From Fusobacterium perfoetens (GTDB lineage: Bacteria > Fusobacteriota > Fusobacteriia > Fusobacteriales > Fusobacteriaceae), in contig NZ_JADYUD010000007.1 of the NCBI RefSeq assembly GCF_021531595.1, positions 1-64,000 on the forward strand: DNA of 64,000 nt, read 5' to 3'. Numbering within the stretch: the stretch's first letter is position 1; each line of letters starts with the position of its first letter. The notes under the pieces are model-generated. The model was given only the letters and a program-made list of their open reading frames with translations, did not search any database and was not told where the DNA came from. The position numbers were made by a program, and so were the translations under genes. Shown here in pieces: positions 56,839 to 63,846 of the stretch.

Positions 56839-58461
56839 TTAAATATGCTGAAAAGTTTCCATTCCTGCATCATTAAATCCACTATCTTTTACAACATCAA
56901 CCTTTAATCTTATATAAAGGTCTGTAACTTCTTTTCTTTCAGAACTATTTTTAAAAAGAGCTCCTACAACAGGAACTGCAGATATAAAAGGAATTCTACT
57001 TTCACCCTTTTGGATTATTCCCTTTTTAAGTCCTCCTATAAAAACTGTATCTCCATCTTTCATTCTCACTGTTGTTTCTATATTTCTTGAAATTTTTGAA
57101 CCTCCCTTCATATCAGAATCCGTACTGCTGTCATCATCTTCTATATAATTCTGCATTTTAAAATCACTTGTTTCAAGATTTATTTTTAAGACAATTGAAT
57201 CATCTTTCATAATTTCTGGAGTAACATTCAAAATTATTCCCGCTTCTCTAAAAATTGGAGTATAAGTTGTTTTTCCATTTTCATCGTTTTCTGTTTTTTC
57301 CTGCCCTATTATTCTTTCCTCAGTTATTTTAAAAACTCCCTCTTTTCCGCTTGTTGTTACTATTGAAGGCACTGCACTAATTGTAAGATCTTGTGTTCCT
57401 TGAAGAAGATTAAAACTCATTCTTAAAATATCTTCATCATTGTTAAAATTTCTTACAAGAGTGAAAACAGAAGAAAAAAGAGAACCTATTCCTGTTACTG
57501 ACGAGTCAGTTAAGATTCCTGTACTTATACTATTTTCTGCTTTTTCTGTATTTCCACCATAAAGCCATGAAAATCCTAAATCTTCAAAAAGATTTTCTGT
57601 CACATCTAAAATTTGAGCTGTAATTCTTACTTGTTTATTATGACTGTCTAACTCTTCAAGATATTTTTTTATCTTTAATACTTTTTTCTTTTCACCACTC
57701 ACATAAATTATTCCTTTATCTTTGTTTTTTGAAAAGTTAACACCCTCTTTTAATCCTGTATCAAGCATATTTTCAATATTTATAGTTTCCACATCACTGA
57801 ATTTTATTTTTTCTATAACAAATCCCTCTTCTTCTGCCTCTTTTTTCTCCTCTTTTTCTTTAAGATCTTTTTCCATAAATATCTTTACAGTATTATCTTT
57901 TTTATTTACATCAATCATTTCCCCTTCTATTCTGCAACCTTTTTTTTCTGCACGAATAAAATAAACTCCATATGGAATATTTTTAAATCTGAATATACCA
58001 TTTACATCTGTATAAACAGGATAGGAGTAATCATCAAGAAGAGTTATTTTTACTCCCTCAATATCTTTTTTATATTCAAGAGATGAAACTTTCCCTGTTA
58101 TATTTCCTCTCCCTTCTTTCTGAACTATTCTTGGAGAAATAAATATATATCCCTTTTCCTTTTTTGCCTTCCATTCATTACTTTCACATAAAATTGAAAG
58201 AATTTTTGTTAAAGTTGCTCCCTCTTTGCAAAATATATCTATATTTTTTTCTTTTATACTTTCTTCAGGAACTATTTCAACTCCCCCTTCTTTAGAAAGA
58301 TAAAAAAGAAAATCAGATACTTTTATTCCTGAAACATTTATTTCTTCTTTATATATTATCTTTTCTGTATCTATTTCTGTTTCCCCAAAAGTTAAAAAAC
58401 ATATAGAAAAGAAAAATACAAGATAAAAACTAATTTTTCTTAATACTCTTTTCACCCTCAT
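56839..58461 (-). CDS. pilQ: Secretin (PilQ/GspD-like) with inserted regulatory-like beta domain
   Basis: An outer-membrane secretin of about 540 residues that would let the pilus or pseudopilus through. After a signal peptide (ISFYLVFFFSICFLTFG) come an N0/STN domain (about 38-112), then a carboxypeptidase-regulatory-like beta-sandwich (about 119-197: ITGKVSS...GVKITLLDDYSYPVYTDVNGIFRFKNIPYGVYFIRAEK), an N1-like domain (about 214-275), and the secretin core (about 280-535: LEELDSHNKQVRITAQILDV, VPSIVTTSGKEGVF, DGDTVFIGGLKKG, IPFISAVPVVGALFK). No AMIN domains. The start is not certain (ATG 58461 or GTG 58464); it overlaps the PilO-like gene. Confidence 0.88.
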   Translation of the reverse strand: MRVKRVLRKISFYLVFFFSICFLTFGETEIDTEKIIYKEEINVSGIKVSDFLFYLSKEGGVEIVPEESIKEKNIDIFCKEGATLTKILSILCESNEWKAKKEKGYIFISPRIVQKEGRGNITGKVSSLEYKKDIEGVKITLLDDYSYPVYTDVNGIFRFKNIPYGVYFIRAEKKGCRIEGEMIDVNKKDNTVKIFMEKDLKEKEEKKEAEEEGFVIEKIKFSDVETINIENMLDTGLKEGVNFSKNKDKGIIYVSGEKKKVLKIKKYLEELDSHNKQVRITAQILDVTENLFEDLGFSWLYGGNTEKAENSISTGILTDSSVTGIGSLFSSVFTLVRNFNNDEDILRMSFNLLQGTQDLTISAVPSIVTTSGKEGVFKITEERIIGQEKTENDENGKTTYTPIFREAGIILNVTPEIMKDDSIVLKINLETSDFKMQNYIEDDDSSTDSDMKGGSKISRNIETTVRMKDGDTVFIGGLKKGIIQKGESRIPFISAVPVVGALFKNSSERKEVTDLYIRLKVDVVKDSGFNDAGMETFQHI

Positions 58462-59245
58462 CACCTAAATAAAATACTGCTCTTTTCCCATTCTCTAAAT
58501 TATGAAGTATAATTTTATTTTTTAATACATCTACTTTCCAATAACTTTCATTAAATTTAAATTTTTCTCCTTTTTTTAAATAATACCTTTGCTCTATCCC
58601 TTTTTTATTAACAATATAAAATATCCCTCTATTTTCTCCTAACATTTTATATTTTAAAATTTTTATATCACCTTCACCTATATCTGTAACAGAAGTCTTT
58701 CTCTCAGCTGTTTTTAAATTTTCTGAAGTTTTTTCTATTTTTATTTCTATAGAAAATCTTAACTTTATCTTGTTGTCTTCTTTATAAAATTCAAAAGGTC
58801 CTTTAAAAATTGAAATATTTTCATTCTTATCTGTTTCAAGAAGAAAATTTATTATATTTTCTTCTGCTCCATATATTGTATAAGGAACTAAACATCTATC
58901 TTCATTAAAAATACTTCTCCCTATTTCATATATTTCTATATTATTTTTTAATAATTTATCATTTAATTCTTTTTGAAATTCTCCTAAAGATTTATATCTC
59001 TTTTCATTTCTCTTTTTTTCTTCATAGCACTCTTTTTGTTTTTCTTTTTCAGCTATAAGTTTCTTTATATCTTCAGTTATAATTTTTTCTGTTGAAATAA
59101 TTCTTTCAAGTCTTTTCTGCTTAAGTTCAATATTTTTTCTATTTTCATAAATTTTTTCTAAAGGAACTGCTACAAAAAAATAAAAAGCAACTGCTGCTCC
59201 TATAAAAAACGATATCTTTTTATGTTCTAATATAAATTTCTCCAT
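58430..59245 (-). CDS. PilO/GspM-like protein with PilP/GspC-like C-terminus
   Basis: A 271-residue bitopic membrane protein. It has a short cytoplasmic start, one membrane helix (ISFFIGAAVAFYFFVAVPL, about 11-29), a coiled coil rich in Glu/Lys (about 30-100), and a ferredoxin-like region (ENNIEIYEIGRSIF... to IKLRFSIEIKI) as in PilO/GspM. The last 80 residues (about 190-271) are additional and beta-rich (GIFYIVNKKGIEQRYYLKKGEKFKFNESYWKVDVLKNKIILHN), reminiscent of the HR domain of PilP/GspC, which contacts the secretin. No separate pilP is seen, so a combined role is possible but only inferred. Confidence 0.7.
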   Translation of the reverse strand: MEKFILEHKKISFFIGAAVAFYFFVAVPLEKIYENRKNIELKQKRLERIISTEKIITEDIKKLIAEKEKQKECYEEKKRNEKRYKSLGEFQKELNDKLLKNNIEIYEIGRSIFNEDRCLVPYTIYGAEENIINFLLETDKNENISIFKGPFEFYKEDNKIKLRFSIEIKIEKTSENLKTAERKTSVTDIGEGDIKILKYKMLGENRGIFYIVNKKGIEQRYYLKKGEKFKFNESYWKVDVLKNKIILHNLENGKRAVFYLGDEGEKSIKKN

Positions 59246-60216
59246 TATTGCACCTTTAGTTCCAGAAAAAATTCATAAAAATTTTCTTTTTTTATAATGT
59301 AATCATAAACTACTTTTTCTATTCTGCTATCTTTTTCAAGAATCTTTGAATATTCAAAAAGAGAGTTTTCATCAAGAGAATTTCCTTTTATTGTAAGAAT
59401 ATTTTTTTCAAAATAAATATTTTCTGCTGTTATATTTTCTGGCATCATTTTTAAAATTCTGAAAATCTTATCATTAAAATATTCTTTATTTTTTGAAAAT
59501 TCTTCCAGCTTTTCTTTTAATACAGATATTTCTTTTTCAAGCATATTATATTCTGCTTTTAATTTTTCTATCTTTTCTTCCCCTAAAATAATTTCTCTAT
59601 TTACAATTTCTTTTTCCCTTTCAAGTTTTGAATTATAATATTTTATTCCTAAAAAAAATAAAATAAAAATTAATCCTAAGATAATATATTGTTTTTTTCC
59701 TTTTATATCTCCTTTTCTTTGAAATAAAATATCATAATCGTCTAAGATATAATCCTCTTCATCTTTTATAAAAATTTTATTTACTTTTAGATTTTTTCTT
59801 AAAATGAATTCAACAATCTCTTCTATAAAATCTCTTTCAAAAATAAAAACAATATATATTTCATCTGATTTTTTAAAAAATTTTATAAAATAATTTTCTA
59901 TATTGTCTTCATCTAAAAATTCTTTTGCTGAATATTCTATATATTTTTCAAGATTTTCTTCTGAAACTTCATCTTTTGCTACCTGAACCTCAAATTTTTT
60001 AAAACAAAATTCATCTATAAAAATATCCAGAAAAAGTTTTCTTAATTTTCCACTATAAAGATTTAATTTTCTTTCTATATTTTCTGTATCCCAATCTGTT
60101 TTTTGAAAAATTTTTTCTACTTCATTTTCCGTTTCGTATATAATAATTTCATCTGAAAAAACTATTTTCCCTTTTCTTTTATTAAATATTTTATTTTTTA
60201 TATCAGTATATTTCAA
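59245..60216 (-). CDS. PilN/GspL-like inner-membrane assembly protein
   Basis: A 323-residue bitopic protein. Residues 1-170 are cytoplasmic and may be a degenerate PilM/GspL-type domain; a helix at about 176-190 (QYIILGLIFILFFLGIKYY) crosses the membrane, followed by a coiled coil (KLEREKEIVNREIILGEEKI...) and a C-terminal ferredoxin-like domain (MMPENITAENIYFEKNILTIKGNSLDENSLFEYSKILEKDSRIEKV), the PilN pattern. It shares one base with the PilO-like gene. No separate pilM lies in the window, so the N-terminal part may do that job. Confidence 0.7.
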   Translation of the reverse strand: MKYTDIKNKIFNKRKGKIVFSDEIIIYETENEVEKIFQKTDWDTENIERKLNLYSGKLRKLFLDIFIDEFCFKKFEVQVAKDEVSEENLEKYIEYSAKEFLDEDNIENYFIKFFKKSDEIYIVFIFERDFIEEIVEFILRKNLKVNKIFIKDEEDYILDDYDILFQRKGDIKGKKQYIILGLIFILFFLGIKYYNSKLEREKEIVNREIILGEEKIEKLKAEYNMLEKEISVLKEKLEEFSKNKEYFNDKIFRILKMMPENITAENIYFEKNILTIKGNSLDENSLFEYSKILEKDSRIEKVVYDYIIKKENFYEFFLELKVQ

Positions 60217-60835
60217 ATCTTAACTCCTTAATTTCACAATTAACAAGAGAATCTTCATTTAAATCTTTTTCAAATATATACTCTGTATGAACCTGTCCCA
60301 TTATTTTTATAATATATTTTTTATCTTCCATTTCTTCGGCATAAACATTTTTTAATTCTTTTGAAAAAGAAATTACAGCCTTATTAGTTCTTTTGGGAAC
60401 ACTGTTATTTTTTATAAGATTTTTAAATTTAAAAACTGTCTCCTTATCAGAATAATCATAAGTTTTATCATCTCCATCACTATTTTTTATAAATATTTTA
60501 TCAATAACAAAACCATTATCACTTTTTGTAAAAGCATCATAATTATTAAGCCATAAAAGAGTATTCCCCTTTTTCATAAAATATCTGATTACATCTTTTG
60601 TATCAGGATTTTCTGAAATTTCCTTTTCTATTTCTTCCACTTTTTTTAAAAAAACTGCTTCTAAAAGATTTTCTATACTTTCATTTTTTTCTATTTCTTT
60701 TCTGTCTCTTAATACAAAAAGTTCTTCTGATATAAGAAAAGAAGCTGAAAATATTGCCCAACTTATAAAAGAAAAAACAAGAACAGCCACTACAGTTATA
60801 TATCCTTTTTTCTTGTTTTCTTTTTTTACTTCCAT
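60203..60835 (-). CDS. Minor pilin-like protein (PilX/GspK-like)
   Basis: A 210-residue protein with a basic N-terminus and one membrane helix (KKKGYITVVAVLVFSFISWAIFSASFLI), followed by a soluble domain. Compared with classical prepilins the Glu at +5 is missing (G/YITVV), as is common for GspK/PilX-type minor pilins. It overlaps the PilN-like gene by 14 bases and the next gene by 10. Family identity beyond this is not clear. Confidence 0.65.
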   Translation of the reverse strand: MEVKKENKKKGYITVVAVLVFSFISWAIFSASFLISEELFVLRDRKEIEKNESIENLLEAVFLKKVEEIEKEISENPDTKDVIRYFMKKGNTLLWLNNYDAFTKSDNGFVIDKIFIKNSDGDDKTYDYSDKETVFKFKNLIKNNSVPKRTNKAVISFSKELKNVYAEEMEDKKYIIKIMGQVHTEYIFEKDLNEDSLVNCEIKELRFEIY

Positions 60836-61290
60836 ATATATTCTTCCTCTTTTGAAGTTTTATATGCTATTCTTAATTTTATAAATCCATCTTCTTCAAA
60901 AAATTTTCCTTTAACACTTTCAAAAACTATATCATCTTTAAGTCTTTGTCCATCTACAACAGTATATCTTATAAAACTGCTTCCATATTCCTTTCCTGTA
61001 AAATAATAAACAACCTTTATTGTTTTACATTCCCCGTCTTCATATATATCTTTTATTGCTTCTAATTTACCATCATTTAAAATTTTTATCTCTCTGCTAT
61101 TTTTAATTTCCCTATTTATATTTTCCATTACATATATAAAATTTCTGTTGTATCTAAGTTCTTTTCTCACTGTATTTTTTAAATTTATACTCTGTTTTAT
61201 AAATGGAAGAGCAAAACTCATAAAAACAGCAAAAATTCCTGCTACAATAACCCCTTCCAACAAAAAAATCCCTTTTCTCTTTTCTTTCAT
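60826..61290 (-). CDS. Prepilin-like minor pilin (GspJ/PilW-like)
   Basis: A 154-residue protein with a type IV prepilin start: KRKG/IFLLEGVIVAGIFAVFMSFALPFI, with Glu at position +5 after the predicted cut and a hydrophobic helix. The globular part (KTIKVVYYFTGKEYGSSFIRYTVVDGQRL) resembles minor pilins such as GspJ or PilW. It overlaps the next upstream gene by 4 bases. Confidence 0.72.
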   Translation of the reverse strand: MKEKRKGIFLLEGVIVAGIFAVFMSFALPFIKQSINLKNTVRKELRYNRNFIYVMENINREIKNSREIKILNDGKLEAIKDIYEDGECKTIKVVYYFTGKEYGSSFIRYTVVDGQRLKDDIVFESVKGKFFEEDGFIKLRIAYKTSKEEEYIWK

Positions 61291-61724
61291 ATAGGAAGAA
61301 TCTTTTTTATTATCTTATCTTTTGTTTTTACTTCTAAAATAAAAACCTCTGTAAAACTTTTTTCTATTTTATCTTCTTCTATAAATACTTTACTCTTTAA
61401 AAGAGATATCTTAATATCCGAAGAAATCTTTATTCCTCTTAATTTAGTAACTGTTTTTTCAGGTCCTTCTTTTAAAATAAAAACTCCTTTTTCTGTGTCA
61501 TCTTTTATAAGATAATAAGTTTTATCTGCACCTCCTTTTTCTTTTAATTTTTTTATAAATACACTCTCTAAATTCTCAGTGAGTTTTCTTATCTCATAAT
61601 CTTCTTTTATATAATTAAGTTTATTTATATTTTTGTTCATAAGCATAACAAGTGGTAATATTATAATTGAAAATAACCCTGCAACAGCTATGAACTCTAT
61701 AAAAAGATATCCTTTTCTTTTCAT
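61287..61724 (-). CDS. Prepilin-like minor pilin (GspI/PilV-like)
   Basis: A 145-residue protein with prepilin start MKRKG/YLFIEFIAVAGLFSIIILPLVMLM, Glu at +5. The globular part is short and Lys-rich. It overlaps the prepilin peptidase gene and the next minor pilin gene by 4 bases each, so translation is coupled through the whole cluster. Confidence 0.72.
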   Translation of the reverse strand: MKRKGYLFIEFIAVAGLFSIIILPLVMLMNKNINKLNYIKEDYEIRKLTENLESVFIKKLKEKGGADKTYYLIKDDTEKGVFILKEGPEKTVTKLRGIKISSDIKISLLKSKVFIEEDKIEKSFTEVFILEVKTKDKIIKKILPI

Positions 61725-62188
61725 AAAATTACTATAACCCCAAAAACTACACTTCCTATACAGATAAAAGGAGCAAATGGTATTTCCTTCTCTTTTTTAT
61801 ATTTTTTTAAAATTATTAATGGTGTTACAAAAATAAATCCTAAAATAAAAATAAGATTATGAAGTAATATCAGATTATAAATACCTGAATATCCTAAGTA
61901 AAAACCAATTGCTCCCATAAGTTTTATATCTCCAAATCCTATAACTTCTTTTTTAAAAAAATCACTTACATACCCATAGAGAAATATAAAAAGTACTGGA
62001 TAAATACCAAGTCCTAATAAACTCTTCTCAAAATCTCCATCTGCAAAAATTATTTTTAAAATTCCTAGAAAAATTATTCCAAGAGTAAAAAAATTGGGTA
62101 TTATTTTTTCTTTTATATCTTTTAAAGTTATTAAGATTAGAAAAATAACAAAAAAAATATCAAAAATATGTTCTATAATTCTGTCCAT
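61721..62188 (-). CDS. pilD: Prepilin peptidase, short form
   Basis: A 155-residue membrane aspartic peptidase (A24 family) that cuts the prepilin leader. The two catalytic Asp are in LITLKDIKEKIIPNFFTLG and VIGFGDIKLMGAIGF (GxGD). It lacks the N-terminal cytoplasmic methyltransferase domain of PilD/GspO, so it is like TadV/FlaK or ComC-truncated forms; N-methylation of the pilins may be absent or done otherwise. About six hydrophobic segments. It overlaps the prepilin gene by 16 bases. Confidence 0.88.
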   Translation of the reverse strand: MDRIIEHIFDIFFVIFLILITLKDIKEKIIPNFFTLGIIFLGILKIIFADGDFEKSLLGLGIYPVLFIFLYGYVSDFFKKEVIGFGDIKLMGAIGFYLGYSGIYNLILLHNLIFILGFIFVTPLIILKKYKKEKEIPFAPFICIGSVVFGVIVIL

Positions 62189-62664
62189 TTATCTCCATTT
62201 ATATTATATTTTTTTATTTCGTCTCCATGAGTAAACCATATATTTATTCCATCAGATTTTTTATTATCTCCTTCTCCTGTTACTTCTGGATCTTTTGTAG
62301 TAAATCCTATTTCTCCTCCATAAATAATTTCTTCACTGTCTGCTTCTTCTTTGCTTCCTCCTATTTCCACTACAACTTTACCATCTTTCACTAAATCTGA
62401 AGCATTTTCTGAAAGATATTTTTCAAGATTTTTAAATTGCTCTGCTGTTATCTCTCCATATTCTGTACTTTTTACAAAACTTTCTCCTTCATCTAAATAG
62501 TAAAGCTGAGATGCTGTTCTTAAAGACTCAAGTACAGCTACTGCTTTTGTTTCTTTTCCTTTAGCCATATAAACCATAACCTTTGGAGTAATAAAGCTTG
62601 ATAAAACACCTATTATCCCTAACACAACCAATAATTCAATAAGTGAAAAACCTTTGTTCTTCAT
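62173..62664 (-). CDS. Type IV prepilin / major pseudopilin
   Basis: A 163-residue prepilin with the classical start MKNKG/FSLIELLVVLGIIGVLSSFITPKVM: short basic leader, cut after Gly5, Phe at +1 and Glu at +5. The globular part is acidic (EGESFVKSTEYGEITAEQ) and ends INIWFTHGDEIKKYNINGDKW; no Cys pair is seen. It has a very strong ribosome site (GGGAGGGG), as expected for the main subunit. Could be PilA/ComGC-like or GspG-like. Confidence 0.88.
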   Translation of the reverse strand: MKNKGFSLIELLVVLGIIGVLSSFITPKVMVYMAKGKETKAVAVLESLRTASQLYYLDEGESFVKSTEYGEITAEQFKNLEKYLSENASDLVKDGKVVVEIGGSKEEADSEEIIYGGEIGFTTKDPEVTGEGDNKKSDGINIWFTHGDEIKKYNINGDKWTEL

Positions 62665-62682: not shown

Positions 62683-63846
62683 TTAAATATTATCCATCAT
62701 TTGAAAAATTGGAAGATATATTCCCAAAAATATTAATCCAGTGATTATTCCTATTATAATAATACTCACTGGTTCTAGAACTTTTATTCCCAGCTGAAAT
62801 TTTTCTTTTAAATACTCTTTATTTCTTAATGATACTGCAAAAAGAGTATCTACAAGTTCTCCTGATTCTTCCCCTGAGTTTATAAGTTCCAAATCTATTT
62901 TTGAAAAAACTTCCATTTTTTCAAAAGATTTTCCTATACTTTTTCCTTTTCTCAAATACTTTTCAGATTCTTCAATTCTTTTTTCAAAATATACATTATC
63001 TGTTTCCTCTTCCAATATTTTTACTGCTTCTGTTATCGTTATTCCAGAAGCCAAGAGAATTCCTAAAACATATGTAAAATTTGAAATAAAAATTTTATCT
63101 TCTATATATTTAAATATATTAACTTTCATAAATTTTTGAAATAATTTTTCTCTTAATTTTTTCTTTTTCAAAAATCCTGTTATTATAATTAAAATAAATA
63201 TTCCAACAGAAACAATAAAAATAAAATTATCTGCAAAAAAAATTATAAACCTTGTTATTAAAGGCGGGCTTTGAGAAGAAGCTTTTATTATTTTTATAAA
63301 ATCAGGAAGAATATATATCCCTGTAAAAATTATTAAAAAGATAATCATTATAAATACTGTCAGAGGATAAAACATGATTTTTAAAATCTCTTTTTTTGCT
63401 TTTTCTCTGTCTCGCATTCCTTTTTCAATAATTTCAAAAGCCTGATATATATTTCCAGATTCTTCTCCCGACTTAATTATCGTATATTCACTTGCTTTAA
63501 GATTTAATCCACTGTTTTTAAACATTTCATGAAGACTTTCTCCATTTCTTAGAGAGTCTTTCATCTTATTTATATAAAATCTTAAATTTCTATTCTCGCC
63601 TAATATTTCAAAAATCCTTTGAAAAGAGTATCCATTTTTTATAAACATCTTTGATTGTGTGAAAATCATAATTACATCTTCCAATTTTTCTTTTCTTGTA
63701 AAAAAAGGAATATAATACAATTTTTCTGAAAAAATATCTTCACTTTTAATTTTTTTTCTTACATCTTTTTCATCATTTCCTCTGCTGAATCCTAATATAA
63801 ATTTTCCTTTTCTTGTATATCCTGTATAAAAATATAATTTCAGCAT
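62683..63846 (-). CDS. pilC: Type IV pilus assembly / type II secretion platform protein
   Basis: PilC/GspF is the inner-membrane platform that works with the ATPase. The 387-residue protein has two T2SSF domains, each followed by hydrophobic helices: FTQSKMFIKNGYSFQRIFEILGENR ... SLHEMFKNSG ... IIKSGEESGNIYQAFEII, then FISNFTYVLGILLASGITITEAVKILEEETDN ... ELINSGEESGELVDTLFAV. Its ATG overlaps the stop of the ATPase gene (ATGCTGA). Confidence 0.92.
   Translation of the reverse strand: MLKLYFYTGYTRKGKFILGFSRGNDEKDVRKKIKSEDIFSEKLYYIPFFTRKEKLEDVIMIFTQSKMFIKNGYSFQRIFEILGENRNLRFYINKMKDSLRNGESLHEMFKNSGLNLKASEYTIIKSGEESGNIYQAFEIIEKGMRDREKAKKEILKIMFYPLTVFIMIIFLIIFTGIYILPDFIKIIKASSQSPPLITRFIIFFADNFIFIVSVGIFILIIITGFLKKKKLREKLFQKFMKVNIFKYIEDKIFISNFTYVLGILLASGITITEAVKILEEETDNVYFEKRIEESEKYLRKGKSIGKSFEKMEVFSKIDLELINSGEESGELVDTLFAVSLRNKEYLKEKFQLGIKVLEPVSIIIIGIITGLIFLGIYLPIFQMMDNI

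What the first reader, a model, noticed from the sequence alone, without database searches (positions are those of the whole stretch)
56839..58461. Secretin with a carboxypeptidase-regulatory-like beta-sandwich between N0 and N1
About residues 119-197 read GKVSS...GVKITLLDD...TDVNGIFRFKNIPYGVYFI, the pattern of CarboxypepD_reg/Cna-B-like folds, placed inside the periplasmic part of a secretin where I would expect only N-domains. It may replace AMIN domains in binding the wall or a partner protein.
Basis: partly seen in the sequence, partly recalled or inferred. Interest (0 to 1): 0.55.

Follow-up and report, generated by a model that had tools for sequence, protein, structure and literature searches.

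The report
Pilus channel with extra beta-sandwich domain
The outer-membrane channel of a pilus and DNA-uptake machine in Fusobacteria carries an extra carboxypeptidase-type beta-sandwich between its first two periplasmic domains; the domain is shared by most relatives outside one family and may help tie the channel to the rest of the machine.

Summary
The gene at 56839-58461 (-) encodes the genome's only secretin. Residues 118-201 (counted from the GTG at 58464) form a transthyretin-like CarboxypepD_reg domain ("CPD").

It is not peculiar to this genome. 56 of 90 PilQ-like secretin loci in the Fusobacteriota survey carry it, including the deepest families sampled; 0 of 13 T2SS-like paralogues do. 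A tree made without the N-domains needs three changes, which fits one gain and two losses. A Fusobacterium vincentii record has it too; in the related F. nucleatum, pilQ is reported as needed for DNA uptake.

Function is inferred. No AMIN domain was found in 55 homologues and no conserved polar site in the domain. Losses are nested: every genome with a PilP-like domain encoded upstream keeps the CPD, and every CPD secretin keeps N0. That suits a spacer or adaptor on the inner-membrane-facing side. Wall binding is untested. New variant of a known kind.

The parts
56839..58461 (-). pilQ-like secretin gene (ATG at 58461; an in-frame GTG one codon upstream at 58464)
   Evidence: only PF00263 match in the genome
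58384..58461 (-). signal peptide-like N-terminus (residues 2-27), read by eye
   Evidence: sequence; no signal peptide predictor was run
58126..58347 (-). N0 domain (residues 40-113), STN/FecR_C fold
   Evidence: AF2 model residues 13-86, VIA-align to PupR, MxiD, InvG N0, PDB profile to PilQ N0 4ar0, FecR_C in 36 of 55 homologues
57862..58113 (-). inserted CarboxypepD_reg / transthyretin-like beta-sandwich (residues 118-201)
57823..57870 (-). flexible, poorly conserved linker (residues 199-214; pLDDT around 50-55)
   Evidence: lowest identity of the segments compared
57643..57822 (-). N1 KH-like domain (residues 215-274)
   Evidence: secondary structure; PDB profile hits 196-271; Secretin_N in 48 of 55 homologues
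56887..57405 (-). secretin core (residues 354-526)
   Evidence: PF00263 E 3e-34
58430..59245 (-). PilO-like protein with a C-terminal small beta-type domain, perhaps PilP/HR-like
   Evidence: C-terminal domain shared by HMM with separate exported or lipoprotein-like genes upstream of pilQ in relatives; no Pfam or PDB profile match, so the PilO and PilP names are inference
59245..60216 (-). PilM/GspL-PilN-like protein
   Evidence: weak PilN match 256-321, E 0.011, below cut-off; position; inference
60203..61724 (-). three small genes with an N-terminal hydrophobic segment, prepilin-like by position (60203-60835, 60826-61290, 61287-61724)
   Evidence: no significant Pfam match; inference
61721..62188 (-). 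prepilin peptidase-like membrane protein (GFGDIKL motif, recognised from memory)
   Evidence: no NCBIfam match at E<=0.01
62173..62664 (-). major pilin/pseudopilin
   Evidence: N_methyl PF07963 E 1.3e-7; GFxxxE domain over cut-off
62683..63846 (-). PilC/GspF platform protein; a PilB/GspE-like ATPase gene follows, most of it past the window's end (contig C7:63849-64994)
   Evidence: T2SSF E 1.7e-36

Best explanation
This is the PilQ-type secretin of the genome's only type IV pilus/DNA-uptake apparatus. Its periplasmic arm is N0 - CPD beta-sandwich - flexible linker - N1 - secretin barrel. SHOWN: fold (by prediction) and order of the domains, distribution in the phylum, absence from the T2SS-like secretins of the same phylum, clean losses. 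INFERRED: in the 12-15-mer typical of secretins (stated in passages of PMC10653833) the sandwiches add an extra, flexibly tethered layer between the N0 ring and the N1 ring. They lengthen the periplasmic arm and offer protein-binding surface near N0, the domain that in the T2SS binds the inner-membrane HR protein GspC (a similar role for PilP is called likely in passages of PMC10499894). I think the domain most likely acts as a non-enzymatic spacer/adaptor that helps the secretin meet the inner-membrane platform (PilO/PilP-like proteins encoded immediately upstream), and that it is dispensable in lineages that simplified this contact.
For: Fold. Distribution: CPD in 56 of 90 PilQ-like loci, 56 of 59 outside family f4, 0 of 31 in f4, 0 of 13 T2SS-like loci. 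A tree of the secretin part alone (no N0, CPD or N1) puts the 13 T2SS-like rows on one side of a branch (SH-aLRT 99) and needs 3 changes of the CPD state, against a mean of 33.2 in label shuffles: one gain and two losses fits. Nested losses: of 80 loci where the upstream gene could be scored, all 34 with the PilP-like C-terminal domain have CPD and N0; the 46 without it split into 15 CPD+N0+, 2 CPD-N0+ and 29 CPD-N0-; no CPD+N0- locus was seen. Constraint: mean pairwise identity over 52 homologues is 0.31 for CPD, 0.32 for N0, 0.36 for N1, 0.15 for the linker and 0.47 for the core, so the domain is held about as tightly as its neighbours. Columns conserved in more than 60% of rows are Gly, Tyr, hydrophobic or scattered K/E, with no invariant polar site, which argues against an enzyme or isopeptide centre. 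Pilus context: PilT over cut-off and a PilB/GspE-like ATPase, ComEC.
Against: No interaction was tested. The nested pattern rests on few events (two CPD losses, about four losses of the upstream domain as I read the tree), so it may be chance. The PilP-like identity of the upstream domain failed two tests. pTM of the three-domain model is only 0.49, so the packing of CPD against N0 or N1 is unknown. 15 loci keep the CPD without the PilP-like domain, so that domain cannot be its only partner.
Confidence: 0.42

Rival explanations
1. The CPD is a wall or envelope anchor that takes the place of the AMIN domains found in other PilQ proteins and positions the secretin in the cell.
For: No AMIN match in any of 55 homologues. 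In M. xanthus and P. aeruginosa the AMIN domains recruit PilQ to septal/polar peptidoglycan, and absence of AMIN overall goes with peritrichous pili (passages of PMC10653833).
Against: AMIN domains are said not to be universal in T4aP secretins (PMC10653833 passages), so their absence needs no substitute. No family or fold hit points to peptidoglycan binding. Mean net charge of the domain is about zero (-0.5, range -7 to +5, n=55), and no conserved polar site was seen. The nearest folds are carboxypeptidase D, SusC N-terminal extension and Cna-B pilins.
Confidence: 0.2
2. Passive spacer: the sandwich only lengthens the periplasmic arm and has no specific partner.
For: No conserved surface signature. 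Where N0 and CPD are lost (family f4), a low-complexity stretch rich in K, N, Q, E and S, 20-107 residues long (n=31), stands in their place.
Against: Identity similar to N0 (0.31 against 0.32) and retention in 56 of 59 loci outside f4 with one apparent origin suggest more than length. The f4 stretches vary too much in length to keep a distance.
Confidence: 0.25
3. The CPD is a built-in substitute for PilP (a cis N0 partner).
For: A review says pilM, pilO and pilP are absent in F. nucleatum (passages of PMC12940168). CPD and PilP-type domains are both small beta domains near N0 (the latter recalled).
Against: All 34 loci with the PilP-like upstream domain also have the CPD, so the two coexist rather than replace each other.
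Confidence: 0.06
4. Artefact: a chance match of a sub-threshold Pfam model to an ordinary N-domain.
For: Pfam score 30.3 bits, below its own cut-off of 32.3.
Against: All-beta AF2 model with pLDDT 91 and Z 13.4 to carboxypeptidase D; 46-49 of 55 homologues match at E<=0.01; a separate N1 is present.
Confidence: 0.01

Closest known systems
Type IV pilus secretin PilQ (with AMIN, N0, N1)
   Same: N0, N1 and secretin core in this order; operon with pilin, PilC-like platform and PilB-like ATPase; PilT and ComEC elsewhere in the genome
   Different: No AMIN found; a CPD beta-sandwich between N0 and N1; NCBIfam PilQ model below cut-off (105.6 against 284.35 bits)
Fusobacterium nucleatum-complex PilQ
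   Same: The F. vincentii record carries the same N0-CPD-N1-secretin protein, 515 aa; F. nucleatum pilQ is reported as needed for DNA uptake (passages of PMC12940168)
   Different: Nothing in architecture; I did not see the primary paper or the sequence of the tested strain
SusC N-terminal extension (PF13715) of Bacteroidota TonB-dependent transporters
   Same: Same fold: 9hfj Z 12.0, 6ytc Z 10.1; some SusC proteins also carry an STN domain; outer-membrane channel with a periplasmic CPD (passages of PMC7782687)
   Different: Different channel family; PMC7782687 says the extension precedes STN, here the STN-like N0 precedes the CPD. From memory I expect STN-CPD order in many Bacteroidota transporters; not tested
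Tad secretin RcpA with VirB9-like beta N-domain
   Same: Precedent for an unusual beta-barrel-like domain in a secretin's periplasmic arm (passages of PMC10499894)
   Different: There it stands instead of N0; here N0 is kept and the sandwich is added
[quoted passage not shown]
   Same: Z 13.4, rmsd 1.1 A, 79 of 81 residues
   Different: No carboxypeptidase attached; 15% identity

Membership tests
CarboxypepD_reg / transthyretin-like domain | profile similarity | tested here: met
   Pfam E 5.3e-7, though 2 bits under the gathering score in the protein scan and over it in the genome scan; 46 and 49 of 55 homologues at E<=0.01
CarboxypepD_reg / transthyretin-like domain | beta-sandwich fold | tested here: met
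   AF2 pLDDT 90.9; Z 13.4 to 5aq0; predicted, not solved
Secretin | C-terminal secretin core | tested here: met
   PF00263 E 3e-34
Secretin | N0 and KH-like N1 domains | tested here: met
PilQ (type IVa pilus secretin) | curated NCBIfam PilQ model over cut-off | tested here: not met
   105.6 bits against 284.35; MshL and GspD models score higher but are also below their cut-offs. So I file it as PilQ-like by context, not as a member of that curated model
PilQ (type IVa pilus secretin) | genomic context of a type IV pilus with PilT | tested here: met
   operon, PilT/PilU family over cut-off elsewhere in the genome
PilQ (type IVa pilus secretin) | AMIN domain (frequent, not universal) | tested here: not met
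   no AMIN among the 22 Pfam families matched by 55 members at E<=0.01
GspD (T2SS secretin) | groups with the T2SS-like secretins of the phylum | tested here: not met
   the 13 T2SS-like rows are one side of a branch (SH-aLRT 99) that excludes it; the T2SS label itself is mine
Secretin | oligomeric outer-membrane ring | not testable with these tools
   needs purification or cryo-EM
Cna-B with isopeptide bond | conserved Lys/Asn/acid triad | tested here: inconclusive
   no strongly conserved Asn or Asp and only K139, K174 and E173 above 60% in the domain; no structural check of the triad

The most novel reading that the evidence does not exclude
Fusobacteriota PilQ gained, once, an extra beta-sandwich ring that is part of how the secretin couples to the inner-membrane pilus platform. 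Its presence depends on the N0/PilP-type contact, and the machine was stripped down in a fixed order: PilP-like domain first, then the CPD, then N0. Family f4 (Leptotrichiaceae-like) is the end state: a secretin with a low-complexity tether in place of both.
Probability: 0.3. Interest if true: 0.55.

Novelty: new variant of a known kind. Interest (0 to 1): 0.4.

Why it matters
It defines a secretin architecture that holds across most of the sampled families of a phylum, including the Fusobacterium nucleatum complex, whose pilQ is reported to be needed for DNA uptake. Because close relatives with and without the CPD, N0 and the PilP-like domain exist, the phylum is a natural series for asking what the periplasmic rings of a secretin are for, and which contact couples the outer channel to the inner-membrane motor.

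Tried and rejected
Rejected: chance match; CPD as a stand-in for PilP; CPD as a curiosity of this genome. A DNA-binding ring through a positive charge was looked for and not supported (mean net charge -0.5).

Led nowhere: Pfam and PDB profiles did not identify the C-terminal domain of the upstream protein, so PilP/HR-like stays inference. A survey outside the phylum was limited: the genome-contig scan returned 18 Fusobacteriota and 3 other loci (2 titled only 'bacterium', 1 Chthonomonadia), whose secretins read as N0-N1-core without CPD. In the phylum sample around one of them, 53 of 101 genomes matched the profile and no listed row spanned both CPD and N1 (28 of the 48 genomes without a match are not listed there), nor in the 3 genomes; I did not check whether different rows share one gene. 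Plasmids gave two hits, F. vincentii and a partial Phocaeicola one. Other phyla, Bacteroidota above all, were not surveyed, so restriction to Fusobacteriota is not shown.

Limits of the counts: the domain HMMs were built from 19 sequences, most from genomes that are also counted. The one match under the cut-off (G020) was not fetched, and the two G077 rows were taken as one locus. L102 was left out of the tree and L014 was not scored for CPD there; the tree left out L014, L049, L102 and the 13 T2SS-like rows. The upstream domain could not be scored in 10 of 90 loci, and its HMM was trained on 26 of the sequences that it then scored. T2SS-like was first assigned by eye and then checked with a tree that has no N-domains. 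Both trees are quick ones with long-branch warnings.

Full report
What is there. The gene at 56839-58461 (-) encodes a 540-541 aa secretin, the only PF00263 match in this 2.06 Mb genome. From the GTG at 58464, residues 40-113 are N0, 118-201 the inserted domain, 199-214 a weak linker, 215-274 N1 and 354-526 the secretin core. The relatives are Fusobacteriaceae: 18 of 21 loci of the named-genome scan are Fusobacteriota, and the contig of one same-genus genome (G034, 14,666 bases) matches in length the record of Fusobacterium sp. cluster1_bin.39; the match by length is inference.

Fold. Pfam alone is borderline: CarboxypepD_reg 30.3 bits, cut-off 32.3. A profile of 35 homologues of N0-CPD-N1 separates three parts in the PDB: positions 10-80 hit PilQ and GspD N0 domains, 90-168 carboxypeptidase D and NOMO2, 197-271 the N-domains of many secretins. 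AlphaFold2 with 19 sequences gives pLDDT 90.9 for the sandwich alone and 80.7, pTM 0.49, for N0-CPD-N1. [quoted passage not shown] In the three-domain model the N0 part matches PupR, a Parabacteroides anti-sigma factor, MxiD and InvG domains at Z 9.8-11.5. No solved structure of this protein was met in these searches.

Distribution. The secretin family was sought in 98 genomes of the phylum and found in 90. I read 103 loci. With HMMs for N0, CPD and N1, 56 of 90 PilQ-like loci have the CPD: 53 of 56 in f1, and the single loci of f2, f3 and f6; 0 of 31 in f4. The three exceptions in f1 are two genomes of g6, which keep N0, and one gene interrupted by an integrase-bearing stretch (L014). 0 of 13 T2SS-like loci have it. 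A tree of the secretin part without any N-domain sets those 13 apart (SH-aLRT 99) and needs three changes of state; rooted on the T2SS-like side this is one gain and two losses, f4 and g6. In the N1-plus-core tree g6 is nested beside g4, which has the CPD, so g6 is a loss. The root itself is not inferred. By name the scan shows the architecture in Fusobacterium, Cetobacterium, Propionigenium, Ilyobacter and Psychrilyobacter records and in F. vincentii NZ_CP084075.1.

Setting. The operon runs PilB/GspE-like ATPase, PilC/GspF, pilin, prepilin peptidase-like protein, three small prepilin-like proteins, a PilN/GspL-like protein, a PilO-like protein, secretin. PilT is over the NCBIfam cut-off elsewhere, and ComEC is present. 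This fits a type IV pilus/competence machine; a T2SS reading is disfavoured by PilT and the tree. A review reports that pilQ and comEC deletion abolished DNA uptake in F. nucleatum ATCC 23726 and that pilM, pilO and pilP were not found (passages of PMC12940168). The PilO-like protein here ends in a small domain that, by an HMM of my own, is shared with separate exported or lipoprotein-like genes in the same position in other genera. I read this as PilP/HR-like, but Pfam and PDB searches do not confirm it.

How it may work. In the T2SS, GspC HR binds GspD N0 and orders it, and PilP likely does so in pili (passages of PMC10499894). Here losses are nested: PilP-like domain present, always CPD and N0 (34 of 34); CPD present, always N0 (56 of 56); N0 absent only where the CPD is absent too and the PilP-like domain is absent (29 loci) or could not be scored (3 loci). 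This fits a CPD that belongs to the inner-facing end of the secretin and became dispensable after the contact was simplified. The events are few. The domain is about as conserved as N0 and shows no conserved polar site, so an adaptor or spacer is likelier than an enzyme. It stays open.

Known or new. Added or changed periplasmic domains are known in secretins (AMIN in PilQ; a VirB9-like domain in RcpA, PMC10499894 passages). A CarboxypepD_reg domain in a secretin was not described in the papers listed, of which I saw listings only, apart from passages of PMC10499894 and PMC10653833; the library lacks most subscription journals. I call it a new variant of a known kind, with moderate interest.

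Noticed in passing
window 58430-59245: The PilO-like gene upstream of the secretin ends in a small domain that other genera encode as a separate exported or lipoprotein-like gene; it may be the PilP reported missing from F. nucleatum. No Pfam or PDB match.
   Followed up: partly
L014, L049, L077, L102: pilQ is broken in four surveyed genomes: an integrase-bearing stretch stands where the N-terminal half should be in L014, and frame breaks occur in L049, L077 and L102. A frameshift in pilQ of F. nucleatum ATCC 25586 is also reported (PMC12940168 passages). Assembly error is not excluded.
   Followed up: no
L068, L069, L071-L076, L078, L082-L103: In family f4 the secretin has lost N0 and CPD; 20-107 residues of K/N/Q/E/S-rich sequence precede N1.
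   Followed up: partly
L055 (G035, same genus as the window): N0 is degenerate (HMM E 5e-3) and the upstream PilP-like domain is missing, while the CPD is kept: a possible intermediate.
   Followed up: no
own genome C9:38880-39275 and C16:21295-21432 (L125, L127, L128): Other CarboxypepD_reg matches: two in a 360-aa protein (39.7 and 16.5 bits), one weak in a 1618-aa protein.
   Followed up: no
L131 (NZ_CP084075.1): A 2.1 Mb Fusobacterium vincentii record is labelled a plasmid in PLSDB; its size suggests a chromosome.
   Followed up: no
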